From assembly GCF_002002885.1 (NCBI RefSeq), contig NZ_CP019510.1, forward strand, positions 1,488,001-1,552,000: a stretch of 64,000 bases of DNA, written 5' to 3'. A program made the position numbers and the translations under genes. The notes beneath the pieces are model-generated. The model was not told where the DNA came from, searched no databases, and worked only from the letters and a program-made list of their open reading frames with translations. The DNA is from Janthinobacterium sp. LM6. Lineage in GTDB: Bacteria > Pseudomonadota > Gammaproteobacteria > Burkholderiales > Burkholderiaceae_D. Of the stretch, positions 48,506-54,714 are shown piece by piece. Position 1 is the stretch's first letter. Each line of letters starts with the position of its first letter.

Positions 48506-48596
48506 GGAGAGGTGGATGAGTGGTTGAAGTCGCACGCCTGGAAAGCGTGTATAGGTTCATAGCCTATCGGGGGTTCGAATCCCCCTCTCTCCGCCA
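48506..48596 (+). tRNA. tRNA-Ser (GGA)
   Basis: A class II tRNA of 91 nt with acceptor GGAGAGG/TCTCTCC, anticodon loop CTGGAAA (anticodon GGA), a long variable arm (ATAGGTTCATAGCCTAT region) and the T arm GGGGGTTCGAATCCCCC, then G-CCA encoded. Its 3' end is the likely target of the island that follows: a 13-nt repeat of it occurs at 53720. Confidence 0.96.
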
Positions 48597-48600
48597 TAGA

Positions 48601-48646
48601 CACAAAAACAAAAAGGCCACCTTCGGGTGGCCTTTTTGTTTTTGTG
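48601..48646 (+). terminator. Terminator of tRNA-Ser
   Basis: A perfect 21-bp stem (left arm CACAAAAACAAAAAGGCCACC is the complement of the right arm) is capped by a TTCG tetraloop with TTTTTGTTTTT on the right side. Confidence 0.9.
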
Positions 48647-48835: not shown

Positions 48836-49262
48836 ATGGCGGATATGACCCTCGCTCTTGTCAGCATCCCTGGTGTTGGCATGGCCCAAAGCCGCCAGGA
48901 TACTTGGCCAGTTAGGTGACATTCGTTGGTTTTGTAACGCCAAGGCATTTGCGGCCATTCTTGGTGTCACTCCTCGTCAGCGCAATTCCGGCATTTCAGT
49001 GATGGGGCGCACGATGATCGGTCGTACCGGCAATACCTCGCTGCGCGCCGCGCTTTACATGCTCAGCTTGGTCGCACGCCGCCACAATCCCATTCTTTGC
49101 CGTTTTGCCGAACGCTTGTCTGCAACGGGCATGGCGAAAAAAGCCGTGATTGGAGCGATCATGCACAAACTAGCACATCTGATCTATGGTGTGATCCATA
49201 CTGACAAGCCCTATGATGCGCATTATTTGGCAAAAGGACTTGCCATTCAAGACGGTATCTGA
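48836..49262 (+). pseudogene. IS110-family transposase remnant, frameshifted
   Basis: The C-terminal (Transposase_20-type) part of an IS110/IS116/IS902 transposase. One frame reads MADMTLALVSIPGVG; after the run GGCCCAAA near 48883-48890 the homology continues in another frame (KAARILGQLGDIRWF, TPRQRNSGISVMGRT, LIYGVIHTDKPYD). Removing one C restores GVGMAKAARILGQLGD, so a single-base insertion broke the gene. The N-terminal catalytic RuvC-like (DEDD) half is missing. It lies between tRNA-Ser and the NACHT gene and indicates past transposition in this spot. Confidence 0.8.
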
Positions 49263-49321
49263 CCCTCAGTTGCTCATACAGGCTAAACTATTCACCTAAG
49301 AATATAAATCAGGGATACAAC

Positions 49322-52300
49322 ATGGCAGAACCAGGCGGACCAACTACCCAATCCGGCATTTATTATCAAAATACAGTCTCCGCGCTTTACCTTGGCGCTC
49401 TTCTCGATTCGCCTCACCCGTCTGACGTAGGAACCCGCGTAATCTCGGTTAGAATCGAAGCGCCGGAGGACGTGGATGATACCATTGTGACTTATTCGGA
49501 TAGCAGTTGCCACTTCATACAAGCAAAAGAAAATTTATCATTAGCGGGTGAGCCGTGGGATAAATTCTGGGCGGCAGCGAAAAGGCAGATTGAAAAGAGT
49601 ACCAACGAAAGTGATCAAATTAGATTGGTATTGGGGACCTTGGGGGTTAACCTCGAGAACCTTCGCGAAGCACTAGAACGCGCGCAAGGTAAGTTAAGTA
49701 TGGATGAATGGCTCCGCTCGCTAAATGTTAAGCAGAAAAAAATTGCGGCATCAATTGAAAAGTCTCTAGCTACGTCATCGGATCTGGCCTTTACCGTTAT
49801 TCGACGTACTCGAGTAGAATTCATAACACTTGACTTGGCAGAGACCAAACTGGCAAAGATTTGGTTACCTGACTCAAGTGAGACGCCAGCGGCACTGCTT
49901 GGACGGCTCCGTGACTGTTGCGGCGGGGCTGGTAGAATTCGACAGCAGTTTCATGCTAGCGATTTATCCGAACTTTTATTCGATAAATTTCAAGTTTTCA
50001 TATTTGGATCGCAGAGCGACGGATTGGAGCGTTATCGCCAGATGCTGGCGTCTAGAGTTAACCATATAAGCGTTCCTGGCACATCAATTTCCTTGGAAGA
50101 AGCAAAGTTGATTATTTGGCCTCTTGTAAATATAATTTCCAAAGAAGATTATGGCGACTTTGAAAATGAAGACCCTAGGTCGAGATACCTCGATGGAGGA
50201 GATGAAATAGATCTTAAGCAATTTCCAAATGGGAAAAACAAGTTCTTGATACTGGAAAGTGGTGCTGGCCAAGGAAAGTCTACCCTAATTCGCGCGACCG
50301 CGCGTCGTTTAGCAACAGAGACGTCCTATGTTCCGGCACTGATTCACGCTGACGCACTGCCGGAACTTGGCACTATATTGGATTTTTTAAATGGGTCCTA
50401 CAATTTGAGCTACGGTGTAACTATCGATTGGGACCGCCTCTGCGAGCAAGGTCGAGCTGTTATATTGATTGATGGTGTCGATGAAATTGCTGACGATCGC
50501 CGAGCAAGGCTGCTTGAAATGCTGGGATTACTTGCTGCCAATTTCAAGGAGGCGCCAATGATGATTGGTGCTCGTGATGCAGCGATCTCAGCATTTGTAC
50601 CTCACTTCTCTCTATGCCGAGTTCAGCGTCTGAATCGTGTTCAGATGGTGGCAATGTTGACATCATACTTTCGAGCCCGCGGCCAGTTGGACACTCGGGA
50701 AGTTATTAGGCATATAGATGGATACCCTGAATTATCCCTATTGTGTCGAATCCCTTTATTTCTCGCAATATTTGTAGCGACGCTTCCCAAATCCGGGGCA
50801 ATCCCGACAGGGAGAGCGGATTTACTTGAACGATATATTATGCACGTACTCTCACCGGATCGGCACAAGGGGGTACGGAGGAAAAATGTTGCAAAAACCC
50901 AGTTACGCAGGGGTGCGGAGGCATTCGCGGCTATGGCCCTCGAACGTAACGAATCAGCGGTCTCTGAATACATAGCGCGGGCGTGCATATGTAACGTACT
51001 CGGCGATTCGATTGGTGATGATTGCTTCGATGGGTTGGTTCAGCACGGTTTGTTGGAACTGCGCGGGTCTCGGGTTTCGTTTAGTATCCCCACAATTCAG
51101 GAATACTTGGCTGGCTGTACTTTGGCCGACTCTGGTCGGCTAGATGCGACTGATTGGTTATCAAATCTTTATCGGCGTCCTTGGGCTCAGGCGTTTCAGT
51201 TCGCTGTTGAGCGAATTGTAAGTGCTGACTCTGTGCTAGCGCAGCAATTGACGCTTGAAGACGACATTTTTTATACTTCGCTTAGACTAACTGCAAGATG
51301 CCTTGTCAACGGTGCATCGGTTAGTCCACGCCTGCGCGCTGCAGTTGCGGAACGTTTGGTGAGCGCTTGGATTAGTGCAGGGTATTCTACCTGTGTAAAG
51401 ATTGGTCAGCTAATCGAAGATGGGTTTTGCGAACCAATGCATATTGGGGTTCGTAGAGCACTTGTCACATCCGAGCGGGTTAGCCTGTCACGACCAGTTA
51501 TCGTGGCGCGCGCTCGAGAGAGTTCACTAACTCTAGAATGTTTGGCATTTATTTTATCAGGTGATGACATTCGTGAATTATGGAGTCCGGCATGGTTGGA
51601 TGCGTTGTCTGCAGTACTGCCTAATGCATTGGAAATGCTGCTTAACCGTTCTCGTGAGACAAGACGAGGCAATTATGTTGTCGAGGTAATTGCGTCTGTT
51701 ATTTATGGACTCCGCAATGAACACTCCATTGACTGGTCAAAAATTTTTGAAGATCATACGTTGCCCGCAGTTATTCGCCTTGCGGCAAAATTTGCAAGCG
51801 AAAAATTTGATTTTGTTGGCGATGATGAATTGTTTAGGTGTGCTTTTTTAGAGATCGAATCCAGTACGCTATGGAGTGGTTTTGGTATTGCTTACCTTTC
51901 TATTGATGGGTGGAAAGATCATTTGCGAGGCTTATTTTTAGCGCCGCCGGAAGAGCAATCTTTGAACCCATTTTACTTAATTCATGACTTCGACGACGGG
52001 TTTCAAAATCAAGTTGAGTTTCTATCGGAAATTGCCCGTGATCCCCGCACCCAGCCAATTCACATTCAACGCCTTCGATTGACACTTGGAGTGTACGGAC
52101 AGGACGAATTCGCAAGGGCGAGTACCGAATATATTGCTGTAGCGAGTGCACAAGAGGCGATCACATGGAGTCAGTATGCTTGTTATTTCTCCGAGGATAT
52201 CGCGAGATATGGAGTTGAATTATTGCTGGCGCGAGAATTTTTAGTTTCGGATGGCGTTATGCTTTTGGTAGATTTATATGAGCTTGGCATGAGTCGGCCA

Positions 52301-52837
52301 GCGAAGAGGCGCGACGGCGCTGCTATTCGCGGTTACTATAGATTGGAAGAGCCAAGTTTTATTGCCAATCTCGTTATTGCTAAGGCTCGAGAATTATTCA
52401 ATTCGGGAACGCTTAGTATCATTGATAAACGGTCGTTAATAAATTTACTCGCCGAACACGGCGACAGAGAAGATTTAGAGCGACTTCGCGAAGAGATGAA
52501 TATTTATCTTGACTGTCATCAATTAATTAGTAGCGAAGATTGGAGCCTATGGTTCGCACATGCGATCGGTATCGGAAATAGGATAAAATTGGACATCAGT
52601 ATTGATCGCTTGTGGCAAATACTTGATAAATCTAATGGGTTGCCTATGCATGAAATTATTAAACACATTGCAAAAAAGTTGGGTTCAGAAAGTTATGAGG
52701 CATTGGCAAACTACGTGAATCTATCTCCATATTCAAATGTATGGCAGGCGGTTTATTTTTTCTTGGAAGAAAATGCTGAGCGTAATGGCCTCAAAGTTCA
52801 GCGCGTAGAAAATATTCTGACGATTACAAAGTTGTAG
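49322..52837 (+). CDS. DUF4297/Cap4-like nuclease fused to NACHT NTPase (candidate anti-phage NLR)
   Basis: A 1171-aa protein in three parts. Residues 1 to ~210 begin with SGIYYQNTVSALYLGALL, then an acidic motif (IEAPEDVDD, Glu46-Asp53) and FIQAKE (Gln67, Lys69). This E...D...QxK pattern is that of the DUF4297/Cap4 PD-(D/E)xK endonuclease family. Residues ~305-530 are a NACHT-type STAND NTPase: Walker A GAGQGKST (314-321), Walker B LIDGVDE (382-388), then MMIGARD and a winged-helix-like part. About 600 residues of helical, unassigned C-terminal sensor region follow. AGGGA six bases before ATG 49322 fixes the start. Bacterial NACHT/STAND proteins of this type (Avs, bNACHT) sense phage products and then cut DNA. 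The gene is AT-rich, with codon use unlike the neighbours, and sits behind tRNA-Ser, so it was probably acquired. Confidence 0.85.
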   Translation: MAEPGGPTTQSGIYYQNTVSALYLGALLDSPHPSDVGTRVISVRIEAPEDVDDTIVTYSDSSCHFIQAKENLSLAGEPWDKFWAAAKRQIEKSTNESDQIRLVLGTLGVNLENLREALERAQGKLSMDEWLRSLNVKQKKIAASIEKSLATSSDLAFTVIRRTRVEFITLDLAETKLAKIWLPDSSETPAALLGRLRDCCGGAGRIRQQFHASDLSELLFDKFQVFIFGSQSDGLERYRQMLASRVNHISVPGTSISLEEAKLIIWPLVNIISKEDYGDFENEDPRSRYLDGGDEIDLKQFPNGKNKFLILESGAGQGKSTLIRATARRLATETSYVPALIHADALPELGTILDFLNGSYNLSYGVTIDWDRLCEQGRAVILIDGVDEIADDRRARLLEMLGLLAANFKEAPMMIGARDAAISAFVPHFSLCRVQRLNRVQMVAMLTSYFRARGQLDTREVIRHIDGYPELSLLCRIPLFLAIFVATLPKSGAIPTGRADLLERYIMHVLSPDRHKGVRRKNVAKTQLRRGAEAFAAMALERNESAVSEYIARACICNVLGDSIGDDCFDGLVQHGLLELRGSRVSFSIPTIQEYLAGCTLADSGRLDATDWLSNLYRRPWAQAFQFAVERIVSADSVLAQQLTLEDDIFYTSLRLTARCLVNGASVSPRLRAAVAERLVSAWISAGYSTCVKIGQLIEDGFCEPMHIGVRRALVTSERVSLSRPVIVARARESSLTLECLAFILSGDDIRELWSPAWLDALSAVLPNALEMLLNRSRETRRGNYVVEVIASVIYGLRNEHSIDWSKIFEDHTLPAVIRLAAKFASEKFDFVGDDELFRCAFLEIESSTLWSGFGIAYLSIDGWKDHLRGLFLAPPEEQSLNPFYLIHDFDDGFQNQVEFLSEIARDPRTQPIHIQRLRLTLGVYGQDEFARASTEYIAVASAQEAITWSQYACYFSEDIARYGVELLLAREFLVSDGVMLLVDLYELGMSRPAKRRDGAAIRGYYRLEEPSFIANLVIAKARELFNSGTLSIIDKRSLINLLAEHGDREDLERLREEMNIYLDCHQLISSEDWSLWFAHAIGIGNRIKLDISIDRLWQILDKSNGLPMHEIIKHIAKKLGSESYEALANYVNLSPYSNVWQAVYFFLEENAERNGLKVQRVENILTITKL

Positions 52838-52883
52838 ATATTAATCTAGACCTAGCGGAACTATAAGTGAAGCTGTTCCCACA

Positions 52884-53017
52884 GTGTCTTAATTTATGAA
52901 AGCACCTACCAAATGCGTTGAAGTCGTCAAAAAAGAGCACCTCAATAAGAATGGCCGAGCGTCACCCTGAGGAGACGCCGCAGCTCTTTGTGGTTATTCT
53001 ATTCAGGATTAAGACAC
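52884..53017. repeat. MITE-like element with 10-bp terminal inverted repeats
   Basis: GTGTCTTAAT (52884-52893) and ATTAAGACAC (53008-53017) are perfect inverted repeats 134 bp apart. An inner AAAGAGC/GCTCTTT pair gives a long hairpin. It may be a non-autonomous element, or simply the terminator structure of the NACHT gene. Confidence 0.45.
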
Positions 53018-53719
53018 GGTAGAATTGGGTGATATTTATCGGCGGCGCCATGCCAAACCTCCGTAATTTTCGTCGCGTCGATGCCGAACGCCGTCGCCAG
53101 TGCTGGCGGCGGCGGTGACCGACACTGTTTATACTTCCACACCAACGTCCGCATGTTTGAAAATAAAGCAGCTAGGTCTTCGCGAAGTGCGTCAATCTAG
53201 GTTTGGCGAAACTCGGAGACTTTGCTCTCTTTTCCTGCAACAAGAATTGTGTATGCGATACCGCCAGCGTCGAGCGCAGCGCGACAGCGCCTAGGGCAGG
53301 GTATAGCGTAGGTGTAATTTCAAATGGCATGGAAGCATTAGCAGAGTTGTAAATAATGCATCGCATTCAACTTACAACGGTGCAGGTGGGATTTTTTTCT
53401 CAGGTGGCGGAGAGCGCCAGTGTCCTTACCAGATAACGCAACCTACCGGAGCCAGTACAAGTGCCGCTTCGTTCAAATTCATCGACGACTGCGTCGTCTC
53501 TACGCCGTCCGGCAGAATCTATAAACCGCCGCGGATTGGTGGCGACCGCTCATCACGTCGCTGGACCTCGGCGCCGTCCAAGGCAGGGCCTTGTTGAGCC
53601 GCCTTGATAGGCGTGGGTAATGTCTTCATTAAAAGAAAGAACGCGAGGGCACCTATGGGAGCATATCGGCTTTTTGATGAATCACAATCCAACAATGCCG
53701 CTGCCTTTACGAACAATGT

Positions 53720-53732
53720 GAATCCCCCTCTC
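53720..53732. repeat. Candidate att repeat (13 nt of tRNA-Ser 3' end)
   Basis: GAATCCCCCTCTC is identical to 48577-48589 inside tRNA-Ser and in direct orientation, 5.1 kb away. It marks a possible right end of the island. The surrounding DNA is C/T-rich, which weakens the case. Confidence 0.45.
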
Positions 53733-53882
53733 CCATTTTTGAGCGGAACTCGGCCCTTCAGCGCAATATCCCAGCCCGCCGCCCCGAGTACCCAATCTCC
53801 CCCGCAAACCTTATCCCATCTCAACCCCCTCACAATTTCCCCCATGTATCGTAAGCCTCTCCCATCAACCCCGGAGAGTCCC

Positions 53883-54269
53883 ATGTCCTACACCTACACC
53901 AAAGTCACCGACCTGGAAAAAACCGCCATGGTCGGCAATCATCAATGCGTTGCCCTGGTCCGCCACTACGCGGGCGCGCCGGCCACATTGGCCTGGAAGC
54001 AGGGGGAGGCAGTGCTGGGAAATCGTTTTCTGCGTAAGGGCACGGCCATTGCCACGTTTATCAATGGGAAGTATGCGAATCATCAACAAGGCAATCGCGC
54101 GGCCCTGTATATGGGGCAGGCGCTGGACGGGATCATTGTCATGGATCAGTGGGCGGGCAAGCGCCCGGGCATCGTGACTTCGCGCACCTTGCGTGCCAAA
54201 GGCAAGTACAAGAATGGCTTGCATATCGATCCCAGCAACAATGCCGACGCTTTTTTCGTCATCGAATAG
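53883..54269 (+). CDS. BPSL0067-family protein (NlpC/P60-CHAP-like, probable T6SS effector)
   Basis: A 128-aa protein starting MSYTYTKVTDLEKTAMVG. It has a papain-like Cys motif (NHQCVALVRHYAG, Cys22) and later AIATFINGKYANH, VMDQW and DPSNNADAFFVIE, which together match the BPSL0067 family. From family knowledge these are Cys-His peptidoglycan hydrolases, often type VI effectors with an adjacent STY0301-type immunity protein, as here. Where the family usually has GNHAA, this protein has GNRAA (Arg72), so the catalytic His may be missing. GGAGAG just before ATG 53883 supports the start. The second gene follows after 10 bp. Confidence 0.75.
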   Translation: MSYTYTKVTDLEKTAMVGNHQCVALVRHYAGAPATLAWKQGEAVLGNRFLRKGTAIATFINGKYANHQQGNRAALYMGQALDGIIVMDQWAGKRPGIVTSRTLRAKGKYKNGLHIDPSNNADAFFVIE

Positions 54270-54279
54270 GGGAGTGTCC

Positions 54280-54714
54280 ATGCAACATCAACGTTGGTTG
54301 ACCGGCGCCGCCTGCTGCCTATTTCCTATGCTTACTCAGGCTGCGATGCCCGCCGCCCACGCTTGCCCGGAGAGCGTGCCCGAGGCGTCGATCAGCCTGA
54401 ACGCCGTGCCTGCCGGCTGGACGCCGTATATCGGCAGCCCACTCTACCTCAGTGCCGCGGCGCCTATCGACGGCGTACCGGAGCGCAGGGGGCAGCTCGT
54501 GCCTGGCGGGGAGCGCAAGAAGAAAGGGCATACGATACTCAGCTACCGCCTGGAAGGCCCCTATCCAGACGGCAAGTGGCTGCAATGCAGTTACGGCGCG
54601 CATGGTGAAGTAACACTGTCGAAGAGAATGGACGACAGCGTCAGCCTTTGTGAATTCACCTACAGGAAAGGCCGCAAGGCCGGGCAGAACGACATCGATA
54701 TCGATTGCCGTTAG
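54280..54714 (+). CDS. STY0301-family exported protein (probable immunity partner)
   Basis: A 144-aa protein with a signal peptide (hydrophobic stretch ending TQAAMPAA) and then the STY0301-like pattern: CPESVPEASISLNAVPAGW, DGVPERRGQLVPG, GKWLQCSYG, TLSKRM, CEFTY. GGGGAG lies seven bases before ATG 54280. It directly follows the BPSL0067-like gene and probably protects against it in the periplasm. This pairing is inferred from family context. The Cys residues may form disulfides. The pair is followed by a terminator. Confidence 0.7.
   Translation: MQHQRWLTGAACCLFPMLTQAAMPAAHACPESVPEASISLNAVPAGWTPYIGSPLYLSAAAPIDGVPERRGQLVPGGERKKKGHTILSYRLEGPYPDGKWLQCSYGAHGEVTLSKRMDDSVSLCEFTYRKGRKAGQNDIDIDCR

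What the first reader, a model, noticed from the sequence alone, without database searches (positions are those of the whole stretch)
49322..52837. Single-gene DUF4297/Cap4-like nuclease plus NACHT protein: candidate uncharacterised anti-phage NLR
The sequence shows a YQ motif and E...D...QxK at the N-terminus, Walker A GAGQGKST (314-321), Walker B LIDGVDE (382-388), and about 600 residues of C-terminal sensor that I cannot assign. STAND/NACHT proteins with nuclease effectors (Avs, bNACHT) are known defence proteins. The AT-rich composition and the tRNA-adjacent site argue for acquisition. That this particular C-terminal sensor defines a new group is inference.
Basis: partly seen in the sequence, partly recalled or inferred. 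Interest (0 to 1): 0.85.

Follow-up and report, generated by a model that had tools for sequence, protein, structure and literature searches.

The report
Single-gene nuclease-NACHT immune receptor
The gene encodes one large bacterial protein built like an animal inflammasome receptor with a DNA-cutting domain at its front end, most likely a self-contained anti-phage alarm; it forms a small, rare, unnamed family of a kind that is already known to defend bacteria.

Summary
In detail: window 49322-52837 (+) encodes an intact 1171-aa protein with the motifs at the stated residues. I found 14 full-length relatives, so the family is 15 proteins of 1161-1190 aa.

Fold models give three parts. The N-terminus is a Cap4/LmuA/HamA/DUF4297-type PD-(D/E)xK nuclease; E46, D52, D53 and K69 are invariant in 19 of 19 sequences. 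The middle is a NACHT plus helical/winged-helix module that aligns with NLRC4, NLRP3 and NOD2 (best Z 27.6-30.6). The C-terminus is a HEAT-like helical-repeat arm, the most divergent part.

The gene lies in an AT-rich insert at a tRNA-Ser site. None of 20 examined congeners has it there; they hold other cargo, defence-gene homologues included. Neighbours of 9 of 10 relatives' loci scanned match defence models.

Best reading: a single-gene nuclease NLR acting by abortive infection. The design is not new: bNACHT25/32 (PMC12169576) and Avs3 are similar. New are the family, unclaimed by Pfam, PADLOC or NCBIfam models, and its sensor arm, in which NCH1 of bNACHT25 was not detected. What it senses is unknown.

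The parts
49322..52837 (+). single-gene nuclease-NACHT (NLR-like) protein, 1171 aa (P0001)
   Evidence: ORF, translation, 14 full-length relatives, fold model pLDDT 81
49322..50071 (+). residues 1-250: Cap4/LmuA/HamA-type PD-(D/E)xK nuclease domain with helical extension; putative catalytic E46, D52, D53, K69
   Evidence: model pLDDT 88; PDB matches LmuA, Cap4, Avs3, HerA-DUF, HamA; invariance in 19 of 19; weak HamA sequence alignment E 0.013
50222..51514 (+). residues about 301-731: NACHT NTPase with winged-helix and helical domains, NLR-like (Walker A 314-321, Walker B LIDGVDE 382-388)
   Evidence: Pfam NACHT in 15 of 15 members at E <= 0.01; NLRC4/NLRP3/NOD2 best Z 27.6-30.6 over about 230-731
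51515..52834 (+). residues about 732-1171: HEAT-like alpha-helical repeat arm, most divergent part, presumed sensor
   Evidence: helical-repeat model; profile match to alphaRep proteins E 1.1e-4; mean identity to relatives 16% against 30-44% in the other parts
48858..49262 (+). IS110-family transposase, C-terminal remnant (134 aa), between the tRNA and the gene
   Evidence: Pfam Transposase_20 1.3e-14; NCBIfam IS110 1.7e-21 over positions 233-342 of 343
48506..48596 (+). tRNA-Ser (GGA) that borders the variable site
   Evidence: conserved in congeners
48860..53715 (.). approximate strain-specific stretch, without a match in the same interval of 20 of 20 congeners examined

Best explanation
A single-gene bacterial NLR. 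In the resting state the C-terminal HEAT-like arm and ADP hold the NACHT module closed (inferred from homology). When the arm, or a host factor bound to it, meets an infection cue, the NACHT module exchanges nucleotide, opens and oligomerises (inferred). This brings several N-terminal Cap4-like PD-(D/E)xK domains together; they cut double-stranded DNA, of the phage, the host or both, and infection aborts (inferred). Shown here: the three-part architecture (by prediction), intact invariant nuclease and NTPase motifs, conservation of the whole architecture among distant bacteria, horizontal acquisition at a variable site, and defence-gene neighbours of relatives. Not shown: nuclease activity, protection, trigger.
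For: Nuclease: 18 of 18 PDB matches at E <= 0.001 for the N-terminal model are LmuA, Cap4 or Avs3. The aligner's best entries are LmuA Z 14.1, HerA-DUF 13.9, Avs3 13.5, Cap4 12.9 and HamA 12.6; the best entry outside these families has 8.2. Catalytic E46, D52, D53 and K69 are invariant in 19 of 19. NLR module: Pfam NACHT in 15 of 15 members at E <= 0.01; best Z NLRC4 30.6, NLRP3 30.2, NOD2 27.6 over about residues 230-731; Avs3 ranks 7th by Foldseek for the whole model. Sensor arm: helical repeats in the model; alphaRep profile match; lowest conservation. Mobility: absent at the site in 20 of 20 congeners. The nearest kin are a Rhizobium plasmid protein and Tardiphaga (support 100/100), although Tardiphaga is kin of the window's genome only at phylum level. 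GC3 is 0.413 against 0.825. Found in 2 of 398 genomes of the phylum sample, its own included. Context: 9 of the 10 relatives' loci from which I scanned a neighbour have a PADLOC match at E <= 1e-10 (9 of 19 proteins scanned). The same tRNA-Ser interval in congeners holds proteins matching DRT, RmrA, AriA and type I methylase models. Precedent: bNACHT25/32 need their PD-(D/E)XK site for phage protection and degrade DNA on activation (PMC12169576, passages).
Against: No experiment. The Pfam NACHT score for this protein is below its curated cut-off (23.2 against 26.7 bits). Q67 of the QxK motif is replaced by S or N in 9 of 19 sequences. Some entries of the same nuclease families align poorly: DUF4297-HerA 8zir/8ziq Z 5.9-6.0, LmuA entries down to 6.8. 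Neighbours were picked by eye for scanning and have no matched control; 10 of the 19 had no PADLOC match at E <= 1e-10. The fold models rest on 13 and 16 sequences. No phage trigger or interaction is indicated by any result.
Confidence: 0.8

Rival explanations
1. Same machine, different target: it guards against plasmids, integrative elements or gene transfer agents rather than lytic phages, or controls a resident prophage.
For: Two relatives sit on plasmids and the window site is an integrase-associated hotspot in congeners. A CARD-NLR-like system that controls gene transfer agents is in print (PMC13236601, abstract start seen).
Against: Known nuclease-NACHT proteins bNACHT25/32 act on phages (PMC12169576, passages). 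No search for prophage or GTA genes around the window gene was made, so context does not decide.
Confidence: 0.12
2. Non-degradative NLR: the N-terminal domain keeps the nuclease fold but works as a DNA-binding or oligomerising part, and toxicity comes from something else.
For: The second site position (Q67) varies to S/N.
Against: E46, D52, D53 and K69 are invariant across 19 sequences with at least two different backbones, which argues for selection on catalysis.
Confidence: 0.05
3. Decaying cargo: an acquired gene without present function in this strain.
For: The interval holds a transposase remnant and no match to the congeners' integrase; the NACHT bit score is below the Pfam cut-off.
Against: Uninterrupted 1171-codon frame of family-typical length with every invariant site intact.
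Confidence: 0.06

Closest known systems
bNACHT25 / bNACHT32 (bacterial NLR-related proteins, clade 6; PMC12169576, passages seen)
   Same: single protein, N-terminal PD-(D/E)XK DNase, central NACHT module, C-terminal helical sensing part; defends by DNA degradation
   Different: bNACHT25/32 carry the NCH1 C-terminal domain; NCH1 (PF22728, name shown) is not matched by this protein (E <= 1) nor by any of the 15 members (E <= 0.01); sequences of bNACHT25/32 were not available for direct comparison
Avs3 (AVAST type 3)
   Same: STAND protein with Cap4-like N-terminal nuclease (type recalled); N-terminal domain aligns at Z 13.5 over 201 residues with Avs3 8dgc; whole model matches 8dgc_B at E 1.2e-9
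   Different: Avs3 chains are about 2000 residues (2004-2028) with another sensor, solved bound to phage terminase; no PADLOC model named Avs appeared at E <= 1
PADLOC candidate PDC-M54A
   Same: homologous N-terminal domain (residues 3-82, E 1.5e-5); a full PDC-M54A protein (E 0) lies next to the Gemmobacter relative
   Different: PDC-M54A of Gemmobacter is 1621 aa with an ATPase that Pfam sees only as a weak AAA_22 and a weak HEAT match; only the N-terminal domain is shared with P0001
Lamassu LmuA, CBASS Cap4, Hachiman HamA, HerA-associated DUF4297
   Same: fold of the nuclease domain and, with HamA, the aligned E...D...QxK site
   Different: those nucleases work with SMC, SAVED or helicase parts (recalled and entry titles), not with a NACHT module
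Animal NLRs (NLRC4, NLRP3, NOD2)
   Same: NACHT, winged-helix and helical domain arrangement, 398-434 residues aligned at 3.3-3.9 A in the best entries
   Different: no CARD/PYD or leucine-rich repeats seen; nuclease and HEAT-like arm instead

Membership tests
NACHT / STAND NTPase (bacterial NLR-related proteins) | NACHT NTPase with Walker A and hhhD[GAS]hDE Walker B | tested here: met
   GAGQGKST 314-321, LIDGVDE 382-388; Pfam NACHT in 15 of 15 at E <= 0.01, though below the curated cut-off for this protein; fold best Z 27.6-30.6 with NLRs
NACHT / STAND NTPase (bacterial NLR-related proteins) | effector - NACHT - sensor tripartite order | tested here: met
   order of the predicted parts; that the C-terminal arm senses anything is inferred
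NACHT / STAND NTPase (bacterial NLR-related proteins) | ligand-induced oligomerisation | not testable with these tools
   needs biochemistry
Cap4/LmuA/DUF4297-type PD-(D/E)xK nuclease | restriction-endonuclease-like fold of this clade | tested here: met
Cap4/LmuA/DUF4297-type PD-(D/E)xK nuclease | conserved catalytic acid(s) and lysine | tested here: met
   E46, D52, D53, K69 in 19 of 19; Q67 in only 10 of 19
Cap4/LmuA/DUF4297-type PD-(D/E)xK nuclease | DNA cleavage | not testable with these tools
   needs biochemistry
bNACHT clade 6 (bNACHT25/32) | NCH1 C-terminal domain | tested here: not met
   no PF22728 match for this protein at E <= 1 or in any of 15 members at E <= 0.01; PF22728 is NCH1. 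Sequence-profile test only
bNACHT clade 6 (bNACHT25/32) | N-terminal PD-(D/E)XK DNase | tested here: met
   fold and site; activity untested, and whether it is the same nuclease clade was not tested
Avs3 | Cap4-like nuclease at the N-terminus | tested here: met
   Z 13.5, 201 residues, 3.7 A
Avs3 | Avs3 STAND core and terminase-binding repeat sensor | tested here: inconclusive
   no PADLOC model named Avs at E <= 1 (that the library holds Avs models is recalled); whole-model matches to 8dgc have rmsd 17-41 A; length 1171 against about 2000
PDC-M54A | full-length match to the PADLOC model | tested here: not met
   only residues 3-82 match, positions 11-94 of 1621

The most novel reading that the evidence does not exclude
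The 15 proteins form a distinct, unnamed clade of nuclease NLRs whose HEAT-like arm is a previously undescribed class of pathogen sensor, directly recognising a phage component unlike those seen by Avs or bNACHT25. The same nuclease head has been swapped between this animal-like NACHT backbone and PDC-M54A-like ATPase backbones.
Probability: 0.35. Interest if true: 0.55.

Novelty: new variant of a known kind. Interest (0 to 1): 0.42.

Why it matters
If it works as proposed, it adds a compact one-gene NLR with an easily assayed DNase output and a new sensor arm, so that trigger identification by phage escape mutants is straightforward. Its predicted NACHT-winged-helix-helical module is close in fold to NLRC4 and NOD2, which makes it a handy bacterial relative for studying how NACHT modules couple sensing to effector clustering. 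It is an extension of an established picture, not a change of it.

Tried and rejected
Single-sequence searches of PDB (no hit at E <= 1) and of genome contigs (no relative) failed; the alignment-based scan succeeded. Viral contigs gave no relative by tblastn. The two phage records share only the NACHT part (residues 293-599); the one that I opened (PQ189336) is annotated as bNACHT01-like and carries SNaCT11. Housekeeping role: rejected on distribution (2 of 294 genomes of the family sample at E <= 1e-10, the own genome and one NACHT-only match; 2 of 398 of the phylum sample, the own genome and Tardiphaga; 1 of 385 of the class sample at E <= 1e-30, Tardiphaga itself; 1 of 18 of its genus) and on context. 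An att-type repeat of the tRNA end inside the window was looked for with a minimum of 18 bases and not found. PF22733 and PF22729 were guessed as NCH1 and proved to be NNH1 and NCH3; PF22728 is NCH1 but rang in 0 of 398 genomes and 0 of 14 control genomes, so no NCH1 protein could be fetched for comparison. EruA (NF058535) matches only weakly over residues 376-547; the paper on an 'EruA' concerns, by its title, another protein. No Avs row appeared in PADLOC.

Papers. Passages seen: PMC12169576, PMC13092281, PMC12799240, PMC7159879. Listing or abstract start only: PMC13236601 and the rest. Not held: Cell 2023 10.1016/j.cell.2023.04.015 / PMC10294775 and 10.1038/s41467-024-54214-0. Searches for NACHT with DUF4297 found 0 papers in the held library. 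The NACHT consensus, the Avs3 sensor type, the taxonomic classes of the genera and the general NLR activation scheme are recalled.

Full report
Observation. Library scans of the single sequence give little: Pfam NACHT 6.7e-5 (23.2 bits, cut-off 26.7), PADLOC only weak matches of the first 71-200 residues to PDC-M54A, LmuA and HamA, NCBIfam a weak partial EruA match, no solved structure by sequence.

Relatives. tblastn in plasmids found 12 records: a full-length relative on a Rhizobium phaseoli plasmid (36.9%), one on a Gemmobacter fulvus plasmid (tblastn covers 60%; the annotated gene is 1171 aa), and 10 that share only a part. An alignment-based scan of genome contigs gave 15 loci, 12 of them with full-length members (L008-L019; L008 is the contig also seen as G581). 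The family used below is therefore 15 proteins: the window's, two on plasmids, twelve from genome contigs; lengths 1161-1190 aa. By genus they are alpha- and betaproteobacteria and one Geomonas. Three further proteins of 1517-1525 aa (L007, L020, L021) and one of 383 aa (L022) share only the N-terminal part and match PADLOC's PDC-M54A in part. The family is rare: 2 of 294 genomes of the family sample had a match at E <= 1e-10, one being the window's own and the other NACHT-only; 2 of 398 in the phylum sample, the own genome and Tardiphaga; 1 of 385 in the class of Tardiphaga, Tardiphaga itself.

Fold. The full model (13 sequences) has mean pLDDT 81 and pTM 0.64. The N-terminal model (16 sequences) has pLDDT 88 and pTM 0.84 with the alpha-beta-beta-beta-alpha-beta core of a restriction-endonuclease fold. 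All 18 PDB matches of the latter at E <= 0.001 are LmuA, Cap4 or Avs3. The structural aligner's best entries are LmuA Z 14.1, HerA-DUF 13.9, Avs3 13.5, Cap4 12.9 and HamA 12.6, with the best entry outside these families at 8.2; other entries of the same families score lower, LmuA down to 6.8 and DUF4297-HerA 5.9-6.0. E46, D52, D53 and K69 are invariant in 19 of 19 sequences; Q67 is Q in 10, S in 5 and N in 4. A profile of the domain aligns E46, D52, Q67 and K69 with E, D, Q and K of E. coli Hachiman protein A (8zue; E 0.013, so weak on its own). Residues about 230-731 align with NLRC4 (Z 30.6, 434 residues, 3.9 A), NLRP3 (30.2) and NOD2 (27.6). Residues 732-1171 are mainly helical repeats; the family profile matches alphaRep proteins at E 1.1e-4 over positions 769-992, and one of 15 members matches Pfam HEAT_2.

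Conservation. Mean identity of the window protein to its 14 relatives is 43.8% in residues 1-104, 29.7% in 105-250, 29.8% in 251-300, 33.2% in 301-500, 33.1% in 501-640, 36.5% in 641-731 and 16.0% in 732-1171. Over all pairs the arm is again lowest (23.7%, others 32.5-49.9%). In the closest pair, Gemmobacter and Novosphingobium, the arm has 78.7%, against 85.4-92.3% elsewhere except the 50-residue linker 251-300 (78.0%). A conserved effector and switch with a fast-changing arm is what a sensor under arms-race selection would show; relaxed constraint or alignment error in repeats would also lower these numbers, so this is suggestive only.

Genomic context. The gene is bordered upstream by tRNA-Ser(GGA) and an IS110 remnant, downstream by a BPSL0067/STY0301 gene pair and a 526-aa gene that I recognise as isocitrate-lyase-like (from recall, no call). 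I fetched the interval between the tRNA flank and the downstream gene from 20 of the 39 other congeners searched, choosing ones with both flanks on one contig. In all 20 both flanks align and nothing matches window 48860-53715 (blastn E <= 1e-5); tblastn with the protein finds nothing in any of the 20 (E <= 1e-3). The intervals hold other cargo. In 15 of 20 a near-full-length match to one tyrosine integrase lies just behind the tRNA; Pfam integrase domains were checked in two of them. Of 91 ORFs of at least 300 aa from these intervals (92 found; one of 2698 aa left out for size; the 2.5 kb not included), members match PADLOC models that include Drt2 (3), Drt1a (2), RmrA (2), AriA (3), PtuA (3) and type I methyltransferase (2) at E <= 1e-10 (only the first 25 of 362 models are shown, related models overlap on the same proteins, and I did not count how many of the 91 have any match). 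The site is thus an integrase-associated hotspot with defence-like cargo. The window stretch has no match to that integrase.

Neighbours of relatives. I scanned 19 neighbouring proteins from 10 of the other 14 members' loci, chosen by eye. Nine of the 19, from nine of the 10 loci, have a PADLOC match at E <= 1e-10: type I restriction (L011), GmrSD-type (L012), LmuB-like SMC (L009), OLD/AriA-like (L010), Ppl-like in part (L013), PDC-S15 (L016), PDC-S68 (L005), PDC-M54A (L006) and a partial PDC-M68A (L018); L019 has none. L008, L014, L015 and L017 were not scanned, and there is no matched control, so this is supportive but biased.

Phylogeny. The window protein groups with the Rhizobium plasmid and Tardiphaga proteins at 100/100 support in a 15-row tree, although Tardiphaga is related to the window's genome only at the level of the phylum. 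Gemmobacter groups with Novosphingobium; they belong to different alphaproteobacterial orders (Gemmobacter's is given as Rhodobacterales; that of Novosphingobium is recalled). Both point to horizontal spread. GC3 of the gene is 0.413 against 0.825 in a nearby ORF.

Mechanism and comparison. A PD-(D/E)XK DNase fused to a NACHT module is an established antiphage design: bNACHT25 and bNACHT32 need their nuclease site for protection and degrade DNA when activated (PMC12169576, passages). Avs3 uses a Cap4-like nuclease on another STAND backbone, and its nuclease domain is as close to this one as LmuA and Cap4 are. The most likely mode of action is therefore sensor-triggered oligomerisation, nuclease clustering and abortive infection. 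The NCH1 domain of the bNACHT25 clade was not detected, no Avs model matched, and PDC-M54A shares only its head. I file it as a new variant of a known kind, with the caveat that the published bNACHT clade scheme could not be read and may already contain it.

Noticed in passing
window 53604-54714: Adjacent BPSL0067-family and STY0301-family genes (NCBIfam 1.6e-47 and 7.4e-29); DNA of this pair matches at the same side of the interval in several congeners. Possibly an effector-immunity pair (recalled idea, untested).
   Followed up: no
L044 5377-13473 (congener hotspot): A 2698-aa ORF that combines a DnaG-type zinc ribbon, a reverse transcriptase and a Toprim-like match; an unusual primase-RT fusion in the same tRNA-Ser hotspot.
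   Followed up: partly
L002 559-2400 (own genome, contig 1 around 2046888-2047502): A second, short NACHT protein (613 aa) in the same genome; Pfam shows only the NTPase part.
   Followed up: partly
L007 10001-14578, L020 689-5242, L021 735-5306: The same nuclease head on 1517-1525-aa STAND/AAA-like proteins from two Chloroflexota and a Gemmatimonadaceae MAG, partly PDC-M54A-like.
   Followed up: partly
L022 8001-9152: A 383-aa ORF of a Luteibacter MAG that keeps only the nuclease head with another short C-terminus.
   Followed up: no
window 48601-48646: Perfect 21-bp inverted repeat with a 4-nt loop right behind tRNA-Ser; a terminator or part of an attachment site would be guesses.
   Followed up: no
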